Source: Methanoculleus frigidifontis | Lineage (GTDB): Archaea; Halobacteriota; Methanomicrobia; Methanomicrobiales; Methanoculleaceae | Direction: 5' to 3' | DNA length: 64,000 nucleotides | Assembly (NCBI RefSeq): GCF_030464345.1 | Contig: NZ_VCYH01000001.1 | Coordinates: 496,001 to 560,000, forward strand | Shown here: one piece after another, positions 18,605-28,257 of the stretch | How positions within the stretch are numbered: position 1 is the first letter of the stretch | Layout: each line of letters opens with the position of its first letter | Made by a program: the position numbers and the translations under genes | The notes under the pieces: model-generated | What the model saw: only the letters and a program-made list of their open reading frames with translations | The model's database searches: none | What the model was told of the DNA's origin: nothing

Positions 18605-19237
18605 CTACCCGGCCCCGCCCCGCTTTTTTGCCTTGGTGATCTTCCTGCGGTAGAGATCCTCCCGCTCCTGCTCTTCGAGCTGCTCCTCGATGTAGCGCAG
18701 CGTCTCAACGATGCGGGGGATCAGGACACGATCCATCGCGTTCACCTTCCGGCGGGTCCGGGTGATGCTCCGCTCGAGCGCCCGGAGTGTCTCCTCCTTC
18801 TCCCCGAGGAGGAGCGCCTGCTGCAGCACCCGGGCGAACCGGCCGGCGGCGATGACGATCTGCGGCGATGCGCCGATCGGGCAGGACGCAGGAATCTCCG
18901 GCGCTTCCCCGAGCGCCGGCATCCGCAGGCCGAGGACCGATCGCTCGCGGAGGGGAAGGTCGCCGGCATCGGGTACGGCGTAGCCGGCCTCCCGGATCGC
19001 CGCCGGGCCGTCGATCATCTCCGCATCGCGCTCCAGGGCGTAGGCCTCCGCGAGCACCGCGTCGAAGGCGGCCCGGTCCGCCTGGTACTCCGTATAGCGC
19101 CGGAAGAACTCGAGCAGCATCGCGTTCAGCTGGTCTTCGAGGAGGTCGCGCCCCCGCTCCGCCACCTCCCGGCGTTTCCGGAGCCGCTGCAACTCTATCC
19201 GGGTCGGGCGGGTGCCGGCGATGATCTGCCCGGCCAT
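18605..19237 (-). CDS. ahaD: A/V-type ATPase subunit D (central stalk)
   Basis: The 210-residue protein is the coiled-coil rotor axle. Its N-terminal helix (RPTRIELQRLRKRREVAERGRDLLEDQ) and C-terminal helix (RALERSITRTRRKVNAMDRVLIPRI) match the subunit D signature, including the RRKVNALE-like block. It turns inside the A3B3 head and links to F and C. It is the last gene of the operon and starts one base after the ahaB stop. Length is normal. Confidence 0.94.
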   Translation of the reverse strand: MAGQIIAGTRPTRIELQRLRKRREVAERGRDLLEDQLNAMLLEFFRRYTEYQADRAAFDAVLAEAYALERDAEMIDGPAAIREAGYAVPDAGDLPLRERSVLGLRMPALGEAPEIPASCPIGASPQIVIAAGRFARVLQQALLLGEKEETLRALERSITRTRRKVNAMDRVLIPRIVETLRYIEEQLEEQEREDLYRRKITKAKKRGGAG

Positions 19238-19238
19238 G

Positions 19239-20642
19239 CTACCCGTCCGCCTCCCCGGGGTAGTACTTCTCGATGAGGGCGGGCTCGATCCGCACGAGTT
19301 CGCTCTCCGGCAGCATGGAGAGCAGCTGCCACGCAGTATCCAGCGTCTCCTCGAACGTCCGTCGTTCGTTCTCCTGCTGCTGCAGGAACTCCGCCTCGAA
19401 CCGGTCGGCGAACGTCAGGTAGAGGAGGTCGATGTCGCCGAGGCTCTCCTCGCCGACCACCGCGACGAGGCTTCGGAGCCGCCGCCCCCGTGCGTACGCG
19501 GCGTAGAGCTGGTCCTTGACGGCGGCGTGGTCCTCCCGCGTCCGCCCCTCCCCGATCCCGCCCTGCATCAGGCGGGAGAGCGACGGCAGCAGATCGATCG
19601 GCGGGTAGATCCCCTTCCGGTGCAGGTCGCGGGAGAAGACGATCTGCCCCTCCGTGATGTAGCCGGTCAGATCGGGAACCGGGTGGGTGATGTCGTCGTT
19701 GGGCATGGTGAGGATCGGGATCTGCGTGATCGAGCCCTCCCGCCCTTTGATCCTGCCCGCCCGTTCATAGATGGCGGCAAGGTCGGTGTACATGTAGCCC
19801 GGATACCCCCGCCTGCCCGGCACCTCCTCCCGTGCGGCCGCCACCTCGCGGAGCGCCTCGCAGTAGTTGGTCATATCGGTCAGGATGACCAGCACGTGGT
19901 AGCCGAGGTCGAAGGCGAGGTACTCCGCGACGGTGAGCGCCATCTGCGGCGTGATGAGGCGTTCGATCACCGGATCGTCGGCGTGGTTCACGAAGACGAC
20001 GGCTTGCTCGAGCGCTCCTGTCTCCCGGAAGTTCCTGATGAAGAAATCGGCCTCCTCGTAGGTGATACCCATCGCTGCGAAGACCACCGAGAACGACTCG
20101 GCCTGGCCGCGGACACGCGCCTGCCGTGCGATCTGCGCCGCCAGGCGGGCGTGGGGAAGGCCGGAGCCCGAGAAGATCGGGAGTTTTTGCCCCCGCACCA
20201 GGGTGTTCATCCCGTCGATCGCGGAGATGCCCGTCTCGATGGAGTCGCGGGGGAAGTCCCGGGCGGACGGGTTGATGGGGCTGCCGGAGATCTCCCGCAT
20301 CGCATCCGGGATGATGAGCGGCCCGCCGTCGATCGGTTCGCCGGTGCCGCTGAGGATCCGCCCGAGAAGGGCCTCGGTCACCCCGATCTTCATCGTCTCC
20401 CCGGTGAACCGCACCGACGTGCGGAGAGTGTCGACCGCTTCGGTCCCGCCGAAGACCTGCACGACGGCGGTATCCTCCCTGCTCTCCAGCACCCGGCCTG
20501 CCCGCCGCTCGCCGGACGGCACGGTGATCTCGACTACCTCGCCGTAGGCGACGTCCGCCACCCCGGCGACGGTTATCAGCGGGCCGGTCACCCGCGTCAC
20601 CGTGAGGTACTCCCGGGCTCTGGGAGGCGGGTTATCAGCCAC
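19239..20642 (-). CDS. ahaB: A/V-type ATPase regulatory subunit B
   Basis: The 467-residue non-catalytic nucleotide-binding subunit has the N-terminal barrel ([16 protein letters not shown]), the [18 protein letters not shown] segment in place of a Walker A motif, and the [16 protein letters not shown] block. It alternates with A subunits in the hexameric head. The start overlaps the ahaA stop by 8 bases, indicating tight co-translation. No missing conserved block was noticed. Confidence 0.96.
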
Positions 20643-22428
20643 GCGGCGTCACCCCGTAGGCAGCCTTGCCCGCCGTAAGCCCGGCGAAGGCCTCGTCCAT
20701 CTCCTGCGCTATCACTGCATGCTCCCCGGCGAACCGCTCATCCGGCACGAACGGCATCCGCTCGATGCGGCTCTTCACAGCAAGTCCGCCGACCGCCGCC
20801 GCGGAGACGCCGGCGGCGACCGCCCGTTGTCCATGGCGGTAGAACCGGGCGAGCAGGTCGAGCATCAGATACTGCTTTTCGGCAGGGCAGTAGGTGTCGA
20901 CCGGGTGGAACGCAGACTGGATCAGAAACCCGTCCCGGATCAGCCGTGCCTGGACGAGGACGAGCCGGTCCTCTTCGGGGAGTACATCCTCCCCGACGAG
21001 CTGGACCGTCTCTAAAAGTTCGCTCTCCGCCTGGAGGACACCCATCATCTCGGTGCGGTACTCCTCCCAGCGGGGCGCCGCGTGCGCTGTCCACCAGCCC
21101 TGCACCGCCCCTGCGTAGGCCGAGTAGGAGGTGAGCCAGTTGATCGACGGAAAGTGCCGCTCGTGCGCCAGGTCGGCGTCCAGCGCCCAGAGCACCCGGA
21201 CGACGCGGAGGGTATTCTGCGTCACCGGTTCGGAGAAGTCGCCGCCGGGCGGCGAGACCGAGCCGATGACCGTCACCGACCCGGTCCTGCCCGAGCTGCC
21301 GAGGACGGCCATCCGGCCGGCCCGCTCGTAGAAGTCGGCGAGGCGGGAGGCGAGGTAGGCGGGGTAGCCCTGCTCCCCCGGCATCTCTTCGAGCCGGCCG
21401 GAGATCTCCCGCATCGCCTCGGCCCACCGGGAGGTGGAGTCGGCCATCAGGGCAACGTCGTAGCCCATGTCCCGGTAGTACTCGGCGATGGTGATCCCGG
21501 TGTAGACGCTCGCCTCGCGTGCCGCCACCGGCATGTTGCTGGTGTTCCCGATCAGCACCGTCCGGTCCATGAGGCTCTTGCCGGTCGTCGGGTCGACGAG
21601 GGCAGGGAACTGCCGGAGCACGTCGGCCATCTCGTTGCCGCGTTCGCCGCAGCCGACATAGACGATGATGTCTGCGTTCACGTACTTGGCGAGCTGGTGC
21701 TGTACGACCGTTTTTCCGGCGCCGAAAGGCCCGGGCAGCGCCGCGGTCCCGCCCTTCACGAGCGGGAAGAAGGTGTCGATCACCCGCTGCCCGCTGATGA
21801 GCGGGTCGGCCGCCTCGAGCCGCCGCAGTACCGGGCGGGGCTGGCGCACCGGCCAGTACTGCCGCATCCGGACTGTCTGCGTCCGGCCATCGCCTTTGAG
21901 GGTTGCAACGACATCATCGACCGTATACCGCCCTTCGGGTGCGATCTCCGCGATCGTACCCTGCAGCGTGGGCGGCACCATCACCCGGTGCTCGTGCACC
22001 TCCGTCTCGACCACCGCCCCGAGGGTGTCGCCGCCCACCACCCGGTCGCCCGGACGGACCGCCGGGGTAAAGTCCCACCCGCATTCGCGGCGGAGACCGG
22101 GCGCGTGGACGCCCCGGACGATGAAGTCGCCGCCTTCGGCCAGGAGGATCTCCAGCGGCCGCTGGATCCCATCGTAGGTGGTGCCGAGGAGCCCGGGGCC
22201 GAGTTCGGCCGAGAGGGGCATTCCGGTCGTCGTCACCGGCTCGCCCGGGGCTATTCCTTCGGTCTCCTCGTAGACCTGGATCGTTGCCACGTCGCCCTCC
22301 AGCACCACGATCTCCCCGACGAGCTGCTTGTCGCCGACCCGGACGACGTCGTACATCCGGGCTCCGGCCAGGTTCTTCGCAGAGACGACGGCGCCCGCTA
22401 TCCTGACGACCTCGCCGGTGATCGTCAT
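20635..22428 (-). CDS. ahaA: A/V-type ATPase catalytic subunit A
   Basis: The 597-residue catalytic subunit carries Walker [10 protein letters not shown] at about 233-241, the catalytic Glu region GCGERGNEM, the A-type non-homologous insert after the N-terminal barrel (about residues 110-190) and the arginine-finger region near [16 protein letters not shown]. It hydrolyses or makes ATP at the A-B interface. The frame extends upstream to 22527, but the ATG at 22428 starts with the family's usual TGEVVRIAG block and overlaps the ahaF stop by 4 bases (ATGA). Confidence 0.97.
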
Positions 22429-22757
22429 GCCGTCCCCCCGCTCTCGCGCATCCCGAGCGCTGCCAGCGCCCGGACCGACCGGGCGAACCGGTCCTCGTGC
22501 GGTATCCGCCCTTCCTCCCCCGGACACGCGACGATCATCGGGAACGCACCCTTTTCGCTGCGCACCCGCTCGAGGAGATCTGCGATCAGGACGGCGAGGC
22601 TCTCCTGCAGGAGGATGACGCCGACCTCCGGGTCGCGGATGCAGTCGAGCAGCGCTTCGGCCGCGGTCTCTGTGTCGGCGGCGAAATACGTCCGCTTCAC
22701 CCCGGCGAGCGCGAACCCGGCGACCATCCGCGTCCCTCCGATCGCGGCGATCTTCAC
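22425..22757 (-). CDS. ahaF: A/V-type ATPase subunit F (NtpG-like)
   Basis: The 110-residue protein has the small Rossmann-like fold of subunit F: MKIAAIGGTRMVAGFALAGV, then VGVILLQESLAVLIADLLE. It sits on the central stalk with subunit D. It overlaps ahaC and ahaA by 4 bases each. Position between C and A is canonical for archaeal and Enterococcus-type operons. Confidence 0.92.
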   Translation of the reverse strand: MKIAAIGGTRMVAGFALAGVKRTYFAADTETAAEALLDCIRDPEVGVILLQESLAVLIADLLERVRSEKGAFPMIVACPGEEGRIPHEDRFARSVRALAALGMRESGGTA

Positions 22758-23917
22758 GCGGCCGCCCCCCTGACGACGAGGAGCCGCCGGATACGGTCGG
22801 GATCCGCCCCGGTCAGTACGCCGACGAGTGCGGCGTGGAGGTTTCTGCGTTCGTACGCCAGCCCCGCCATGTGCTCGAGGAGCGGCCCGACGGTCAGCGG
22901 GTAGGCGCCGCCGAGCATCGTCGCGTAGTCGAGGAAGGAGGTCTCAAGCGCCGTGGTGATCGCAGTGGTCTCGCCCCCGGTCTCGTACTTCGGGATCAGC
23001 GGCGCCAGGACCGGCCAGTAGTCCGTCCCTTCGAGGATGTTCATCGCCTCGGGGACGGAACCCGCCTCCGCCATATGTTCGAGCACCTGCATCTCGAGGG
23101 CAAGCCCCGCGGGGATGAGGTGCTCCACCACCTCCTCGCGGCAGGCGCCGGTCGCCTTCGCCGCGAGAACCGTCGCCACGTTGACGCGGTCGATCCGGGC
23201 GCCGACGTACGCTGCCAGCGGCTGGCGGTGCTGCTGCCCGCTGCGGAGCACCCCTCGCGAAAGTTCGGCGTAGAAGAACCGGTCGAGGGCGGCGAGAAGC
23301 GGGCCTGCCCGCCAGTCCTCGAGGTAGCCCTCGAGCGCGTCGCGGAACGCCTCGCCGTACGGTGCGTCCCCGATGATCTCGGCCACCTCCTCCATGCCGG
23401 CCGCTTCTGCAATCCGCCGCAGCGTCGCGGCGTCCATCCGGCCGGCGGGGAGGAGTTCGTCTACGATCCCTGCCGGCGCGCTGTCCAGGTGTTTCCGCAT
23501 GATCGCGCTCTTCAGTGTCTCAATCTCAAATTCCATCATCGCCGCCTCCAAGAACGGCGCAATCGCCGCCGGTGCCGCCTGCTGCAGAGTGCCAAGTTCC
23601 CGTCGGTGCCACGCCGCCAGGGGCAGCCGGAGATCGGCGGCGTCGGACGGCACCTCCTCGAAGAGGCCGCGGGCACGCAGGACCGCGAGGAGTTCACCGG
23701 GCTCGCCCGTCACGGCGAGGGGGGAGATCTCCCGCCGCTCGACGAACGGGGTGCCGGTCGCCTTGACGTAGGCGATCGGGTGGACGAACCGGGCGATCTC
23801 CATCACCGGGATGAAGAGGACGACCAGCACGCCGATGATGACGGCCAGGCCGAGTCCTATCAGGACGACGAGGGCGGGCCCGCCGTCCACCGGCAGGTCT
23901 CCGATCTCCGGGATCAC
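22754..23917 (-). CDS. ahaC: A/V-type ATPase subunit C with an N-terminal membrane helix
   Basis: The 387-residue protein matches subunit C, the funnel-shaped socket that joins the rotor axle to the proteolipid ring. Matching segments include FEIETLKSAIMRKHLDSA, ARIDRVNVATVLAAKATG and a PLTVGPLLEHMAGLAYERRNL C-terminus. It differs from the usual soluble subunit because residues about 17-38 form a strong hydrophobic helix (VVLIGLGLAVIIGVLVVLF). A start at the later Met (MEIARF) would remove it, but the GTG/ATG at 23917 overlaps the ahaE stop by 4 bases, as elsewhere in this operon. I therefore favour the longer form. Confidence 0.85.
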   Translation of the reverse strand: MIPEIGDLPVDGGPALVVLIGLGLAVIIGVLVVLFIPVMEIARFVHPIAYVKATGTPFVERREISPLAVTGEPGELLAVLRARGLFEEVPSDAADLRLPLAAWHRRELGTLQQAAPAAIAPFLEAAMMEFEIETLKSAIMRKHLDSAPAGIVDELLPAGRMDAATLRRIAEAAGMEEVAEIIGDAPYGEAFRDALEGYLEDWRAGPLLAALDRFFYAELSRGVLRSGQQHRQPLAAYVGARIDRVNVATVLAAKATGACREEVVEHLIPAGLALEMQVLEHMAEAGSVPEAMNILEGTDYWPVLAPLIPKYETGGETTAITTALETSFLDYATMLGGAYPLTVGPLLEHMAGLAYERRNLHAALVGVLTGADPDRIRRLLVVRGAAA

Positions 23918-24504
23918 GGCTCCTCCTCCGAAAAAAGCCGCGCTGCAACCTCCATGACGACCGATCGCTGCATCCGCTGCAGGCGACCTTCGAACGTCTG
24001 GTTGACGCGGCGGTCACCCCCCTTCGAGCGGAGAACCGCCCCGCCGGTCGGAACCTCGCCGTCCGGCGCCGTCACGGCCGCAGCCTCCCGGGCAACCTCC
24101 CGGATCAGGGGGAGATCCTCCTCCCGCCCTGCGATCACCGCCTCCTCCCCGCCAAGGTCGCGGAGCCCCTCCGCGATCAGCCGGCCGAGTATTGCGGGGT
24201 ACTCCGGCGAGGCGGCGAGCGCGGGAAACTGTGCCTCGGCCCGCCTGATGCAGTCCCGGATCGCTGCGGACCGCGCTTCGTTCACCGCTGTTCTGGCGTC
24301 CATCCGGGCCACGGAGAGGATCCGGCCGGCTATGACCATACCTTCCCGCCGGGCCTCCTCGCACGCCCGTGCATGCGTCCGCCGTCCCTCCTTTTCCGCC
24401 TGCCGGCGGAGCGCGGCGGCTTCGTCGTTCGCCTCCTCTTCGATACCTGCGGCGCGACGGCGTGATTCAGCCAGAATTCGTTCGATGATTGCTTCCACAG
24501 TCAC
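23914..24504 (-). CDS. ahaE: A/V-type ATPase peripheral-stalk subunit E
   Basis: The 196-residue protein has a long charged N-terminal helix rich in Ala, Glu and Arg (about residues 1-90), then a compact C-terminal domain with LGRLIAEGLRDLGGEEAVI and GGAVLRSKGG. The latter corresponds to the GG(V/I) strand of subunit E. With subunit H it forms the peripheral stalk holding the head against the membrane stator. Start codon is GTG at 24504, 15 bases after the ahaK stop. Confidence 0.9.
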   Translation of the reverse strand: MTVEAIIERILAESRRRAAGIEEEANDEAAALRRQAEKEGRRTHARACEEARREGMVIAGRILSVARMDARTAVNEARSAAIRDCIRRAEAQFPALAASPEYPAILGRLIAEGLRDLGGEEAVIAGREEDLPLIREVAREAAAVTAPDGEVPTGGAVLRSKGGDRRVNQTFEGRLQRMQRSVVMEVAARLFSEEEP

Positions 24505-24519
24505 GTCTGGTCACCTGTA

Positions 24520-25962
24520 TTATCCGAAGATGCCAATCCCGAAGAGGATCAGGATGGCGACGAGCAGCCCGAAGATGGCGAAGGTCTCGGCGATGACGGC
24601 GAAGATCAGGCTCCGGCCGAGGGCGGCGCCGGAGCGGGCCGTGGCCTGGATGCCTGCCGCGGCGGTGATCCCCTGGCCGATCGCCGAGAGCCCGGCGAAC
24701 CCGACAGCAAGCCCGCTTGCGATCGTCGCCAGCCCGACGAGGGCGGTGACGGTGACGTCCTGGGTCAGGATGCCGGTGAAGGCCATGATCAGGACGGCGA
24801 CGAGGAGGCCGTAGATCGCCTGGGTCTCCGGGACGACCGAGAAGACCAGGCTCCGGCCGAACATCTCGTCGTCCTCCGCGGTCACGGAGACGCCCTCCGC
24901 TGCGGTGATCCCCTGGCCGATGGCGGAGAGCCCGGCAAGCCCGACGGCGAACCCGGCGCCGACGGCCGCGAACCCTGCCGCGATTGTTGCGGTGACGTCC
25001 CGGGTCAGGATCCCGGTGAACGCCATGATCAGGATGGCGGTGAGCAGGCCGTAGATCGCCTGGGTCTCCGGGACGACCGAGAAGACCAGACTCTTGCCGA
25101 AGGCTTCGTCCTTCTCCGCCGTCGCCGAGACCCCCGCCGCCGCGGTGATCCCCTGGCCGATGGCGGAGAGCCCGGCAAGCCCGACGGCGAGCCCCGCACC
25201 GATGGCCGCAAACCCGGACGCGATTGTTGCGGTGACGTCCTGGGTCAGGATCCCGGTGAACGCCATGATCAGGATGGCGGCGAGGAGGCCGTAGATCGCC
25301 TGGGTCTCCGGGACAACCGAGAATACCAGGCTCTTGCCGAAGGCCTCGGGCCGCCGGGCGGATGCGGTGATCCCGGAGCCGGCGGTGATCCCCTGCCCGA
25401 CGGCGGAGAGCCCGGCGAACCCGACGGCCGCCCCGGCGCCGATGGCGGCAAGCCCGGCCGCGTCCGAGACCGCGAGGTCGCCGGCGAGGAGGCCGGTGAA
25501 CGAGAGGATCAGCACCGCGGCGAGGAGGCCGTAGATCGCCTGGGTCTCCGGGATGACCGAGAAGACCAGGCTCCGGCCGACCGACCGTTCTTCCTGGACG
25601 GAGGCCGAGACCCCGGCAGCGGCCGCGATCCCCTGGCCAATGGCGGAGAGTCCGGCGAGGCCGACGGCAAGACCTGCGCCGACGGCGGCAAGCCCCATCG
25701 CAAACGAGACCTCGCCCCCCTCTCCCCCGAGGAGGCCGGTCGAGAGGAGGATCAGGACGGCGACGAGGAGGCCGTAGATCCCCTGCGTCTGCGGCACCGC
25801 CTGGAAGACGAGCGAGGTCCCGAACTTCTCGGGGCGGGCTGCGAGCGCGGCCGCACCTGCGGCGCCGACTATCCCGACCCCGATCCCGGACCCGACGGCG
25901 GCGAGCCCGACGGCCAGCCCCGCGCCGGTGACGGCGAGGACGGTGCCGATCCCGATCACCAC
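24520..25962 (-). CDS. ahaK: A/V-type ATPase proteolipid with six fused hairpins
   Basis: The 480-residue rotor subunit is six consecutive two-helix hairpins, 12 membrane segments in all. The second to sixth hairpins have an 80-residue period. Ion carboxylates are Glu139, 219, 299, 379 and 459. Hairpin 1 has Gln58 at this position (VPQTQGIYG). A helix-1 Gln (GQG: 110, 190, 270, 350, 430) is present in hairpins 2-6 but not 1. A Thr-Gln pair (TQ) is present in hairpins 1-5 but not 6, which has ETF. This is the ligand layout of Enterococcus hirae NtpK repeated five times, so sodium binding is predicted. It overlaps ahaI by 7 bases. Confidence 0.95.
   Translation of the reverse strand: MVIGIGTVLAVTGAGLAVGLAAVGSGIGVGIVGAAGAAALAARPEKFGTSLVFQAVPQTQGIYGLLVAVLILLSTGLLGGEGGEVSFAMGLAAVGAGLAVGLAGLSAIGQGIAAAAGVSASVQEERSVGRSLVFSVIPETQAIYGLLAAVLILSFTGLLAGDLAVSDAAGLAAIGAGAAVGFAGLSAVGQGITAGSGITASARRPEAFGKSLVFSVVPETQAIYGLLAAILIMAFTGILTQDVTATIASGFAAIGAGLAVGLAGLSAIGQGITAAAGVSATAEKDEAFGKSLVFSVVPETQAIYGLLTAILIMAFTGILTRDVTATIAAGFAAVGAGFAVGLAGLSAIGQGITAAEGVSVTAEDDEMFGRSLVFSVVPETQAIYGLLVAVLIMAFTGILTQDVTVTALVGLATIASGLAVGFAGLSAIGQGITAAAGIQATARSGAALGRSLIFAVIAETFAIFGLLVAILILFGIGIFG
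24523..25704 (-). repeat. Tandem 240-base repeats encoding proteolipid hairpins 2-6
   Basis: Five tandem units of about 240 bases are visible in the DNA, for example the segment encoding PETQAIYGLL recurs almost verbatim at 24.8, 25.05, 25.29 and 25.53 kb. Units 3-5 are the most alike. The first and last hairpins have diverged, consistent with expansion from the middle. Confidence 0.9.
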
Positions 25963-27950
25963 CGTTTCTCACCCCCGGAGCGGAGACTGTGCCGCCGCAC
26001 GGCCGCAAACGGGGCGAACGCCCTGCCGCCGCCGGTGTAGAACTTTCCGAAGAACTCGACATACTGGAGGCGCAGCGAGTGGATCATCCCGCCGAGCGCC
26101 TGCAGCAGCAGGTTCAGGGTGTGGGCGACGACGGCGAAGGCGACGGCCACCGGGACGAGCCATGGGCTTATCGCGGCGATCATCCCGGTGAGGATGTTGA
26201 TCGTCAGGGCGATCCCGAGCGTGGCGAGGTCGAGCGCCAGGATCCGGGTGTAGGAGAGCCAGTCGCCGAGGAAGTTCGTCAGCCGGAACGCGCCGAGCGG
26301 GCCGTAGGCGACGAAGACCATCCCGATCCCGGTTACGGCGCCGATGACGGCGATGATCTCGGCCGCCGGCGGGAGCGTGGCCCAGCCGAAGAACCCGAGC
26401 GCCAGGACCGCGGCCGCCGGCTGCAGGATGAACCAGGAGCACTGCTCGAAGATCCCCTGCCGGGTCCGGTTCGCCGCGACGTTCTGTCGGAGGCCGAGGA
26501 GCAGGCCGGCGTTGATCTGCACCACGCCGATCGCCAGCGCCACGACCAGGATCGTGACGGGCTCGGCGAGCGGGTCGATGACGGTAAACGGCAATTCCAT
26601 GCCGAAGAACCGCGGGAGAAGGTCGCCGAAGAACCCGCCCTGCAGGAGCCCGAAGACGATCCCCGAGACGCCGCAGGCGAGCAGGATAAGCGTCAGATCG
26701 CGCACCGACCGGCTGCTCCGACTGAGGAGGTGGTAGCCGAGGTACGCCCCGAGGACGAGAACCAGGCCGTAGCCGGCGTCGCCGAGCATGAAGCCGAAGT
26801 AGAGGACGATGATCGGGGCGATGATGACCGTCGGGTCGATCCCGCCGTAGCGGGGCACGGCAAACAAGCTCGTCAGCATCTCGAACGGCTGCGCCCAGGC
26901 AGGATTCTGGTACGCGACCGGAACGGGCGTCCGCGCCGGGTCGGGCGGGGAGAAACGGCAGAACGAGGTGCCGCCGGACGCCTCCTCGACCAGCGCCTCG
27001 AGCCGGGCACGGTCGGACGCCCGGACGAACCCCTCGATCACCACGATCTCCTGCGTGCTGCCGGTCAGGCTGAAGACCTCGCCCTCCTCCCGCAGCATCT
27101 CCGCCTCCTCCCGGTACGCCTGCAGCAGATCGCCGAGGGCGTCCCTGATCGCCGCGATCTCCCCAACAGTCTGCTGCGAACGCTCCCGCACTTCCGCCCG
27201 CTCGGCTTCGAGACGGCGGATGACCTCCTCCGGGGTGCCGGCCAGGCCGGGTGCGGCGATCGGCTCCCAGGCCGTCCCGGCGAGCGCCTCCTCGACCGCC
27301 GGCAGGCGGCCGTTCACGGTGGCGATGGCAAAGACGGCCGTCTCGTCCGTCTCGTGGGAGAGCAGCAGCACCTCGTCGGTCGCGAGGGCGGCGATGGCGT
27401 CCCGGACGGACTCTGCCGCATCGGCGGGGACGGTGCCGGCGAGGACGGTGACGTAGGCGGCGGTGCCGAGGTGTTCGGGGTGCACGCCCAGCGTGCGAAG
27501 ACGGCCGGCCGCCTGCAGATCGGCTTCAAGTTCTGCGGTGCGCTCCCTCAACCCGGCGAGCTCCTGCTGGAGTGCGATCGCCTGCCCGCCCTCGCCGATC
27601 AGCCGGTCGAGGTCTGCGGTGATCTCCGGGAACGGCAAGGCCGGAACCAGAGTCGGTTCCGTAGACCGCGGGACAAAGAGATCGCGCAGTGAGGGTTTTC
27701 TTTCCGGAACGCTCTCGCTGATCGCGGCGAGAATACGGTCTATCTTCAGCCGGTAGTCGATGGAAGCGGTCGTGTACCATGCCCGCTCGCCGGGGGTCAG
27801 CGCAGGTGCGTTCTCGCCGGGCCCATCGTGGATATCCCGAATCTCCACAAGCCCGGACTCGTGGAGCGCTCTCGCGGCCGCCTCTGCTTCAGCGGCATGG
27901 ACGCCGATCGTCACGACGAGCATCTCAGCGGGGGAGAGCACCGTCATCAC
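25956..27950 (-). CDS. ahaI: A/V-type ATPase subunit I (a subunit, membrane stator)
   Basis: The 664-residue stator protein has a cytoplasmic coiled half (to about residue 320, with long helices such as LQQELAGLRERTAELEADLQ). A membrane half of about eight helices follows. The second part includes LFAVPRYGGIDPTVIIAPIIVLYFGFMLGDAGYG in shortened form, a hallmark of subunit I. The essential Arg of the ion path should lie near LSYTRILALDLAT. It forms the two half-channels facing the proteolipid ring. The start may be 27950 or 27947, inside the 3' end of ahaH. Confidence 0.94.
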   Translation of the reverse strand: MMTVLSPAEMLVVTIGVHAAEAEAAARALHESGLVEIRDIHDGPGENAPALTPGERAWYTTASIDYRLKIDRILAAISESVPERKPSLRDLFVPRSTEPTLVPALPFPEITADLDRLIGEGGQAIALQQELAGLRERTAELEADLQAAGRLRTLGVHPEHLGTAAYVTVLAGTVPADAAESVRDAIAALATDEVLLLSHETDETAVFAIATVNGRLPAVEEALAGTAWEPIAAPGLAGTPEEVIRRLEAERAEVRERSQQTVGEIAAIRDALGDLLQAYREEAEMLREEGEVFSLTGSTQEIVVIEGFVRASDRARLEALVEEASGGTSFCRFSPPDPARTPVPVAYQNPAWAQPFEMLTSLFAVPRYGGIDPTVIIAPIIVLYFGFMLGDAGYGLVLVLGAYLGYHLLSRSSRSVRDLTLILLACGVSGIVFGLLQGGFFGDLLPRFFGMELPFTVIDPLAEPVTILVVALAIGVVQINAGLLLGLRQNVAANRTRQGIFEQCSWFILQPAAAVLALGFFGWATLPPAAEIIAVIGAVTGIGMVFVAYGPLGAFRLTNFLGDWLSYTRILALDLATLGIALTINILTGMIAAISPWLVPVAVAFAVVAHTLNLLLQALGGMIHSLRLQYVEFFGKFYTGGGRAFAPFAAVRRHSLRSGGEKRW

Positions 27951-28257
27951 CTTTTATCCGGGAGAGCACGTGCGCCGCCGCGTCCGGGATCCGTTTCCGG
28001 ACCCTCCGGTGCACTCCTTCCGCTTTCTCCGCTCCTTCGCGCCGGATATGCTCCGCCTCGCCTTCGGCTGCCGCACGTGCATCGCTGAGTATCCTCCGGC
28101 GCTCCTCCCGGGCTTCGGCCTCCCAGCGCCCCAGGATAGCCTCCCGCTCGCTGCGGGCGTCTGCGATGATCGCCTCGGCACGCGACCGGGCCTCCGCCAC
28201 GAGGGCCATCGCCTCCCGCTCCGCCTCTTTTATCCGGGTTATCTCGTCGGCAACCAT
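27925..28257 (-). CDS. ahaH: A/V-type ATPase peripheral-stalk subunit H (NtpF-like)
   Basis: This 110-residue, almost wholly helical and charged protein (EITRIKEAEREAMALVAEA) forms the peripheral-stalk coiled coil with subunit E. The frame is open far upstream through the Usp gene, but the ATG at 28257 is where the coiled coil begins. It overlaps ahaI by 26 bases and follows the Usp gene by 14 bases, leaving no room for a separate promoter. Confidence 0.85.
   Translation of the reverse strand: MVADEITRIKEAEREAMALVAEARSRAEAIIADARSEREAILGRWEAEAREERRRILSDARAAAEGEAEHIRREGAEKAEGVHRRVRKRIPDAAAHVLSRIKGDDGALPR

What the first reader, a model, noticed from the sequence alone, without database searches (positions are those of the whole stretch)
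24520..25962. Proteolipid with six fused hairpins and five of six ion carboxylates
Reading the 480 residues directly shows Glu at 139, 219, 299, 379 and 459 and Gln58 in hairpin 1. The helix-1 Gln is missing only in hairpin 1 and the Thr-Gln pair is missing only in hairpin 6. This is the NtpK four-helix unit with four complete hairpins inserted, giving five complete sites within one chain and none at chain-to-chain contacts. Known archaeal fusions include double, triple and 13-fold proteolipids; a six-hairpin NtpK-like chain with terminal blanks would change the ion-to-ATP ratio in a predictable way.
Basis: partly seen in the sequence, partly recalled or inferred. Interest (0 to 1): 0.82.

Follow-up and report, generated by a model that had tools for sequence, protein, structure and literature searches.

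The report
Six-hairpin rotor of second archaeal ATPase
A methanogen carries, beside its ordinary ATP synthase, a second one whose rotor building block is six copies fused into one chain with five predicted sodium sites, and relatives with two, three or four fused copies keep the same two end pieces, so nature has varied the middle of the rotor in whole units.

Summary
Confirmed. The minus-strand ORF at 24520-25962 encodes a 480-residue A-type ATPase subunit K with six diverged hairpins. Hairpin 1 is blank (no helix-1 Gln; Gln58 in place of Glu), hairpins 2-5 are complete, and hairpin 6 has Gln430 and Glu459 but lacks the Gln and Tyr partners. It lies in a complete operon; the same genome has a second, ordinary A-ATPase with an 85-residue one-hairpin K. 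All 34 intact Methanomicrobiales copies that I read show the same six-hairpin pattern, so it is not an assembly artefact. Relatives with 2, 3, 4 or 6 hairpins keep the same first and last hairpins, which match the two hairpins of Enterococcus NtpK; only the number of complete middle hairpins varies. Sites per chain should be n-1 (1, 2, 3, 5), with none at the chain seam. AlphaFold agrees with NtpK. The count switched between 3 and 6 at least twice (AU test). Na+ use, ring size and ion/ATP ratio are inferred, not shown. Fused proteolipids of 2, 3 and 13 hairpins and an extra Na+ A-ATPase in Methanomicrobiales are already published; I found no open-access description of the six-hairpin chain. 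New variant of a known kind.

The parts
24520..25962 (-). Subunit K (proteolipid), 480 aa, six hairpins
   Evidence: ORF; PF00137 x6, 3e-92; AlphaFold pLDDT 91.4, pTM 0.90
25732..25947 (-). Hairpin 1, N-terminal cap: no helix-1 Gln, Gln58 instead of Glu, Thr59/Gln60/Tyr63 present
   Evidence: Motif table; aligned with NtpK hairpin 1
25489..25701 (-). Hairpin 2, complete (Q110, E139, T140, Q141, Y144)
25249..25461 (-). Hairpin 3, complete (Q190, E219, T220, Q221, Y224)
25009..25221 (-). Hairpin 4, complete (Q270, E299, T300, Q301, Y304)
24769..24981 (-). Hairpin 5, complete (Q350, E379, T380, Q381, Y384)
24529..24741 (-). Hairpin 6, C-terminal cap: Q430 and E459 present, Phe461 instead of Gln, Phe464 instead of Tyr
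   Evidence: groups with NtpK-type second hairpins
25956..27950 (-). Subunit I (stator a-subunit), closer to E. hirae NtpI than to Thermus I; SYTR and RLQYVEFFGKFYTGGG segments kept
   Evidence: PF01496; 188.8 bits to 8wci chain P versus 90 to Thermus
27925..28257 (-). Probable subunit H/G (peripheral stalk), 110 aa
   Evidence: PF16999 below its cut-off, 2.7e-4; position in operon
23914..24504 (-). Subunit E
   Evidence: PF01991 2e-24
22754..23917 (-). Subunit C
   Evidence: PF01992 3e-41
22425..22757 (-). Subunit F
   Evidence: PF01990 9e-15
20635..22428 (-). Subunit A (catalytic), 597 aa
   Evidence: PF00006 2e-74; TIGR01043 best family, 906 bits, below its equivalog cut-off of 972
19239..20642 (-). 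Subunit B
   Evidence: PF00006 1e-81; 65% identical to the housekeeping B
18605..19237 (-). Subunit D (central stalk)
   Evidence: PF01813 2e-39

Best explanation
This is the rotor subunit of a second, accessory A-type ATPase, most likely Na+-coupled. One chain supplies six consecutive positions of the membrane ring. Each ion site lies between the outer helix of one hairpin (main-chain carbonyl, Thr, Gln, Tyr) and the next hairpin (helix-1 Gln, Glu), as in NtpK, so the chain holds five sites and the seam between chains is blank, because hairpin 6 lacks the Gln/Tyr partners and hairpin 1 lacks the Gln and the Glu. The chain arose from an NtpK-like two-hairpin protein by insertion of complete hairpins between fixed end caps. 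Two or more chains close the ring; two would give 12 positions and 10 sites (3.3 ions per ATP), three would give 18 and 15 (5 per ATP). Shown by sequence: hairpin number, ligand pattern, caps, operon, second ATPase, wide conservation. Inferred: Na+ specificity, chains per ring, ion/ATP ratio, role. The role I find most likely is Na+ export or Na+-driven ATP synthesis in organisms that already have an ordinary enzyme.
For: Six hairpins and ligand pattern. NtpK ligands are Leu61, Thr64, Gln65, Tyr68 of hairpin 1 and Gln110, Glu139 of hairpin 2 (PMC2359735); this chain aligns with NtpK over both hairpins. Structure model best matches NtpK, TM 0.88 by target length, 1.7 A. Caps shared by capped 2-, 3-, 4- and 6-hairpin relatives and forming their own groups in the hairpin tree. 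Complete second A-ATPase with one-hairpin K in the same genome. Orthologous operon clade, separate from the housekeeping clade. Stator subunit closest to E. hirae NtpI, 189 bits against 130 for the housekeeping paralogue. ProAD reports a Na+-A-ATPase beside two H+-A-ATPases in eight Methanomicrobiales genera (PMC11738941).
Against: Nothing tested here contradicts the architecture. Na+ specificity from motifs is a prediction only. Chains per ring are unknown: known rings vary in size, and 12, 18 or 24 hairpins would all take six-hairpin chains. In the Thermoplasmatota six-hairpin relatives hairpins 3 and 4 break the perfect pattern, so sites can be lost. No expression data. The marine or halotolerant bias of named hosts (Methanogenium, Methanocalculus) is anecdotal and rests on my knowledge of these genera.
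Confidence: 0.8

Rival explanations
1. The repeat number is an assembly artefact (expansion or collapse) and the true chain has another hairpin number.
For: In several MAGs contigs end inside this gene (L050, L051, L053-L056, L058, L066, L067), so short reads do struggle here; one draft genome (L052, L187) breaks the frame.
Against: Hairpins 2-6 differ by 13-34% in DNA; 34 intact copies all have six, including genomes in one or two contigs.
Confidence: 0.03
2. It is an ordinary H+-coupled ATP synthase whose fused rotor is neutral drift without functional consequence.
For: Fusion of tandem proteolipid hairpins is known to recur (PMC2359735); counts changed several times here.
Against: A separate ordinary one-hairpin A-ATPase exists in the same genome; the Na+ ligand set is kept in all five sites of all intact Methanomicrobiales six-hairpin copies read; six is invariant across 34 copies although the middle repeats are similar enough to recombine.
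Confidence: 0.12
3. The ring is mixed: the six-hairpin chain assembles together with the one-hairpin K of the other operon.
For: Mixed rings exist elsewhere (A. woodii c1/c2, PDB 4bem, matched); both genes are in one genome.
Against: The stator subunits of the two operons are far apart (27% identity over 573 residues), and the one-hairpin K lacks the Gln/Tyr partner residues (E.IPETI..F), so seams would be incomplete.
Confidence: 0.05

Closest known systems
Enterococcus hirae V-type Na+-ATPase rotor subunit NtpK (PDB 2bl2)
   Same: Fold (1.7 A over 150 columns); same site geometry split between one hairpin and the next; same two end hairpins; stator subunit NtpI is the nearest solved relative of this I subunit
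   Different: NtpK has two hairpins and one site; here four complete hairpins lie between, giving five sites
Triple-hairpin K of Methanocaldococcus jannaschii and other methanogens (NCBIfam NF004913, 220 aa)
   Same: NF004913 is the best NCBIfam match (500 bits); fused proteolipid; the 3-hairpin relatives found here have the same caps
   Different: Half the number of hairpins; I did not read the M. jannaschii sequence itself here, and its link to NF004913 is my inference from the length
13-hairpin K of Methanopyrus kandleri
   Same: Fused multi-hairpin proteolipid with Na+ ligands
   Different: All 13 hairpins keep the full ligand set (PMC2359735), so no blank caps, and one chain is taken to close the ring
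Four- and six-hairpin K of the Thermoplasmatota record's phylum (L155-L159)
   Same: Same caps, same hairpin counts 4 and 6
   Different: Except in L158 they carry a ~110-residue N-terminal extension with a likely signal peptide; in the six-hairpin forms hairpin 3 lost the Gln/Tyr partners and hairpin 4 lost its helix-1 Gln; probably independent origin

Membership tests
A/V-type ATPase subunit K (ATP-synt_C, PF00137) | Two-helix hairpins matching PF00137 above its cut-off | tested here: met
   Six stretches, 303 bits, cut-off 24
A/V-type ATPase subunit K (ATP-synt_C, PF00137) | Ion-binding carboxylate in the second helix | tested here: met
   Five of six hairpins
A/V-type ATPase subunit K (ATP-synt_C, PF00137) | Encoded with the other A1Ao subunits | tested here: met
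   I, E, C, F, A, B, D by Pfam; H below its cut-off
NtpK-type capped Na+ proteolipid | First hairpin blank but with Thr-Gln...Tyr; last hairpin with Gln and Glu but no Gln/Tyr partners | tested here: met
   ligands from PMC2359735
NtpK-type capped Na+ proteolipid | Exactly two hairpins | tested here: not met
   Six hairpins; so it is a relative of NtpK, not an NtpK
NtpK-type capped Na+ proteolipid | Na+ transport | not testable with these tools
   Complete Na+ ligand sets only predict it
Monomeric ring subunit (Methanopyrus type) | One chain long enough to close the ring | not testable with these tools
   Six hairpins are fewer than in any ring I know of, so at least two chains are expected (inference)
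NCBIfam NF004913 (220-aa subunit K) | Match over its equivalog cut-off | tested here: met
   500 bits against 211, but in three separate stretches, so the model does not describe the six-hairpin length

The most novel reading that the evidence does not exclude
Chain lengths in this capped family are limited to 2, 3, 4 and 6 hairpins because all must divide a conserved 12-position (or 24-position) ring. The six-hairpin enzyme would then have a two-chain ring with 10 sites and two opposite blank positions, and its relatives 6, 8 or 9 sites on the same ring: a natural series of gear ratios made by changing how often a blank seam occurs, not by changing ring size.
Probability: 0.25. Interest if true: 0.8.

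Novelty: new variant of a known kind. Interest (0 to 1): 0.52.

Why it matters
How ring size and site number set the ion/ATP ratio of rotary ATPases is usually studied by comparing unrelated enzymes or by mutating one. Here closely related enzymes, sometimes within one family of methanogens, differ by whole hairpins between constant caps (3 versus 6, switched at least twice), and sit beside an ordinary enzyme in the same cell. That makes the effect of site density, blank positions and rotor symmetry testable in natural homologues. It also warns that no NCBIfam K model matched here has this length and that short-read assemblies break at this gene.

Tried and rejected
Assembly artefact: rejected. 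Only ATPase of the genome: rejected, a second complete operon exists. A single origin of the six-hairpin form without later change: the AU test rejects the six-hairpin rows as one clade (p 6e-4) and the three-hairpin rows as one clade (p 1e-5). Chains of 5 or 7 hairpins: looked for in 232 Methanomicrobiales, 394 genomes of the phylum, 152 of the Methanosphaera phylum and 243 of the Thermoplasmata record's phylum; none found, though long upstream frames at first looked like candidates. Plasmids: only weak matches to two Bacteroidales records. Literature: no open-access paper found that describes a six-hairpin chain; ProAD's supplement, which groups K by hairpin number, could not be read.

Full report
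OBSERVATION. It lies on the minus strand, 24520-25962, 480 residues from a GTG that overlaps the end of the I gene. Pfam finds ATP-synt_C six times. Residues are as stated: Glu139, 219, 299, 379, 459 and Gln58; helix-1 Gln at 110, 190, 270, 350 and 430 but not in hairpin 1. One detail is off: hairpin 6 reads E-T-F, so its Thr is kept and only the Gln and the Tyr are replaced, both by Phe. The period is 240 nt, and hairpins 2-6 differ by 13-34% in DNA, with third codon positions 50-79% identical; the longest exact internal repeat is 49 nt.

SURROUNDINGS. On the same strand lies a complete A-type ATPase operon: H (weak match), I, K, E, C, F, A, B, D. The genome has a second complete A-ATPase operon on contig 4 with an 85-residue one-hairpin K. 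The two operons are distant: B is 65% identical, I 27% over 573 residues, D 28%, C 24%. In an A+B tree the window operon falls in a clade of its own, away from the housekeeping clade of Methanomicrobiales.

DISTRIBUTION. In 232 Methanomicrobiales genomes, 58 have a multi-hairpin relative. By my count from that table, 35 have an intact six-hairpin frame, 13 a three-hairpin one, one a four-hairpin one, one is broken by a stop and 8 are cut by contig ends. I read the hairpins of 34 intact six-hairpin copies; every one has the pattern blank cap, four complete hairpins, C-terminal cap. Named hosts include Methanogenium marinum and cariaci (the latter frame-broken in its draft), Methanocalculus taiwanensis and chunghsingensis, a Methanofollis and a Methanoculleus MAG. 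The three-hairpin form occurs in a 3,544,738-base contig (G911), which from memory is the size of the Methanospirillum hungatei JF-1 genome. The other genome of the window's own genus lacks the gene, so presence is patchy.

ANATOMY AND ORIGIN. The published Na+ site of NtpK uses Leu61, Thr64, Gln65 and Tyr68 of hairpin 1 and Gln110 and Glu139 of hairpin 2 (PMC2359735). Our chain aligns with NtpK across both hairpins. Reading each hairpin for these positions gives, in capped relatives: two hairpins, V.LPQTQ..Y Q.MSETF..F; three, one complete hairpin between; four, two between; six, four between. Some two-hairpin chains have Gly or Met where Gln58 is. In a tree of 108 hairpins the first hairpins group together, the last hairpins group together and the middle ones cluster mostly by lineage, for instance all middle hairpins of family f5 including those of its three-hairpin members. 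The tree rests on 71 columns, so inner detail is weak. In a tree of A+B+I the six-hairpin rows are not one clade (AU p 6e-4), nor are the three-hairpin rows (p 1e-5): the number switched between 3 and 6 at least twice. Within chains, middle hairpins are often about as alike as orthologous ones, which suggests exchange among them; that is inference.

STRUCTURE. AlphaFold with 34 aligned sequences gives pLDDT 91.4 and pTM 0.90, all helical hairpins. The nearest solved structure is NtpK: TM 0.88 by target length, 1.7 A, 37% identity.

MECHANISM. From the ligand pattern each of hairpins 2-6 completes a site with the hairpin before it: five sites per chain. The contact between chains pairs hairpin 6 (no Gln, no Tyr) with hairpin 1 (no Gln, no Glu): blank. 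Sites per chain are n-1 for every capped chain of the window's phylum read here, apart from the odd all-blank K of G164. The stator I subunit is nearest to E. hirae NtpI, 189 bits against 90 for Thermus; for the housekeeping I the figures are 130 and 94. This favours Na+, as does the published count of a Na+ A-ATPase beside two H+ A-ATPases in eight Methanomicrobiales genera (PMC11738941). Na+ use remains a prediction. The ion/ATP ratio is 5m/3 for m chains: 3.3, 5.0 or 6.7 for two, three or four.

RING SIZE. In this family I saw 2, 3, 4 and 6 hairpins and never 5 or 7. These all divide 12 and 24; 4 does not divide 18, and 3 and 6 do not divide 20. Independent changes are few, perhaps seven or eight, and E. 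hirae's ten NtpK chains make 20 hairpins, so this is a lead, not a result.

COMPARISON. Fused proteolipids are known: 2 (many), 3 (M. jannaschii), 13 (M. kandleri) (PMC2359735). The NCBIfam K models that match are 102 to 220 residues long, one to three hairpins. ProAD states that K may have two or more hairpins with or without a site and groups K by hairpin number; its supplement may list six. The chain is therefore a new variant of a known kind, with the caps-plus-inserts series as the main new point.

Noticed in passing
L107, reverse complement from 4353 (G164); also L104: An A-ATPase operon with a three-hairpin K whose hairpins all carry Gln in place of the carboxylate (PQTQ), followed at once by a 77-residue one-hairpin K with a complete PETQ site: a possible mixed ring of blank triplets and active singles. 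ProAD mentions 41 A-ATPases with 'non-catalytic' K.
   Followed up: partly
L155, L156, L159 (and L157 with four hairpins): K proteins of 603-613 aa from the Thermoplasmata record's phylum with six hairpins and a ~110-residue N-terminal extension that starts like a signal peptide; hairpins 3 and 4 have lost partner ligands.
   Followed up: partly
L108 (G143): A four-hairpin capped K inside Methanomicrobiales family f2, where both three- and six-hairpin forms also occur.
   Followed up: no
L050, L051, L053-L056, L058, L066, L067: MAG contigs end inside this gene, so the K gene is a recurrent assembly breakpoint and is likely undercounted.
   Followed up: partly
L095 (G083): A one-hairpin A-ATPase operon lies about 10 kb from the six-hairpin operon on the same contig.
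   Followed up: no
L008:8069-8326: The housekeeping one-hairpin K aligns with a helix-1 Glu and PETI in helix 2, like the two-carboxylate sites described for Fusobacterium and predicted for Methanosarcina (PMC3692424).
   Followed up: no
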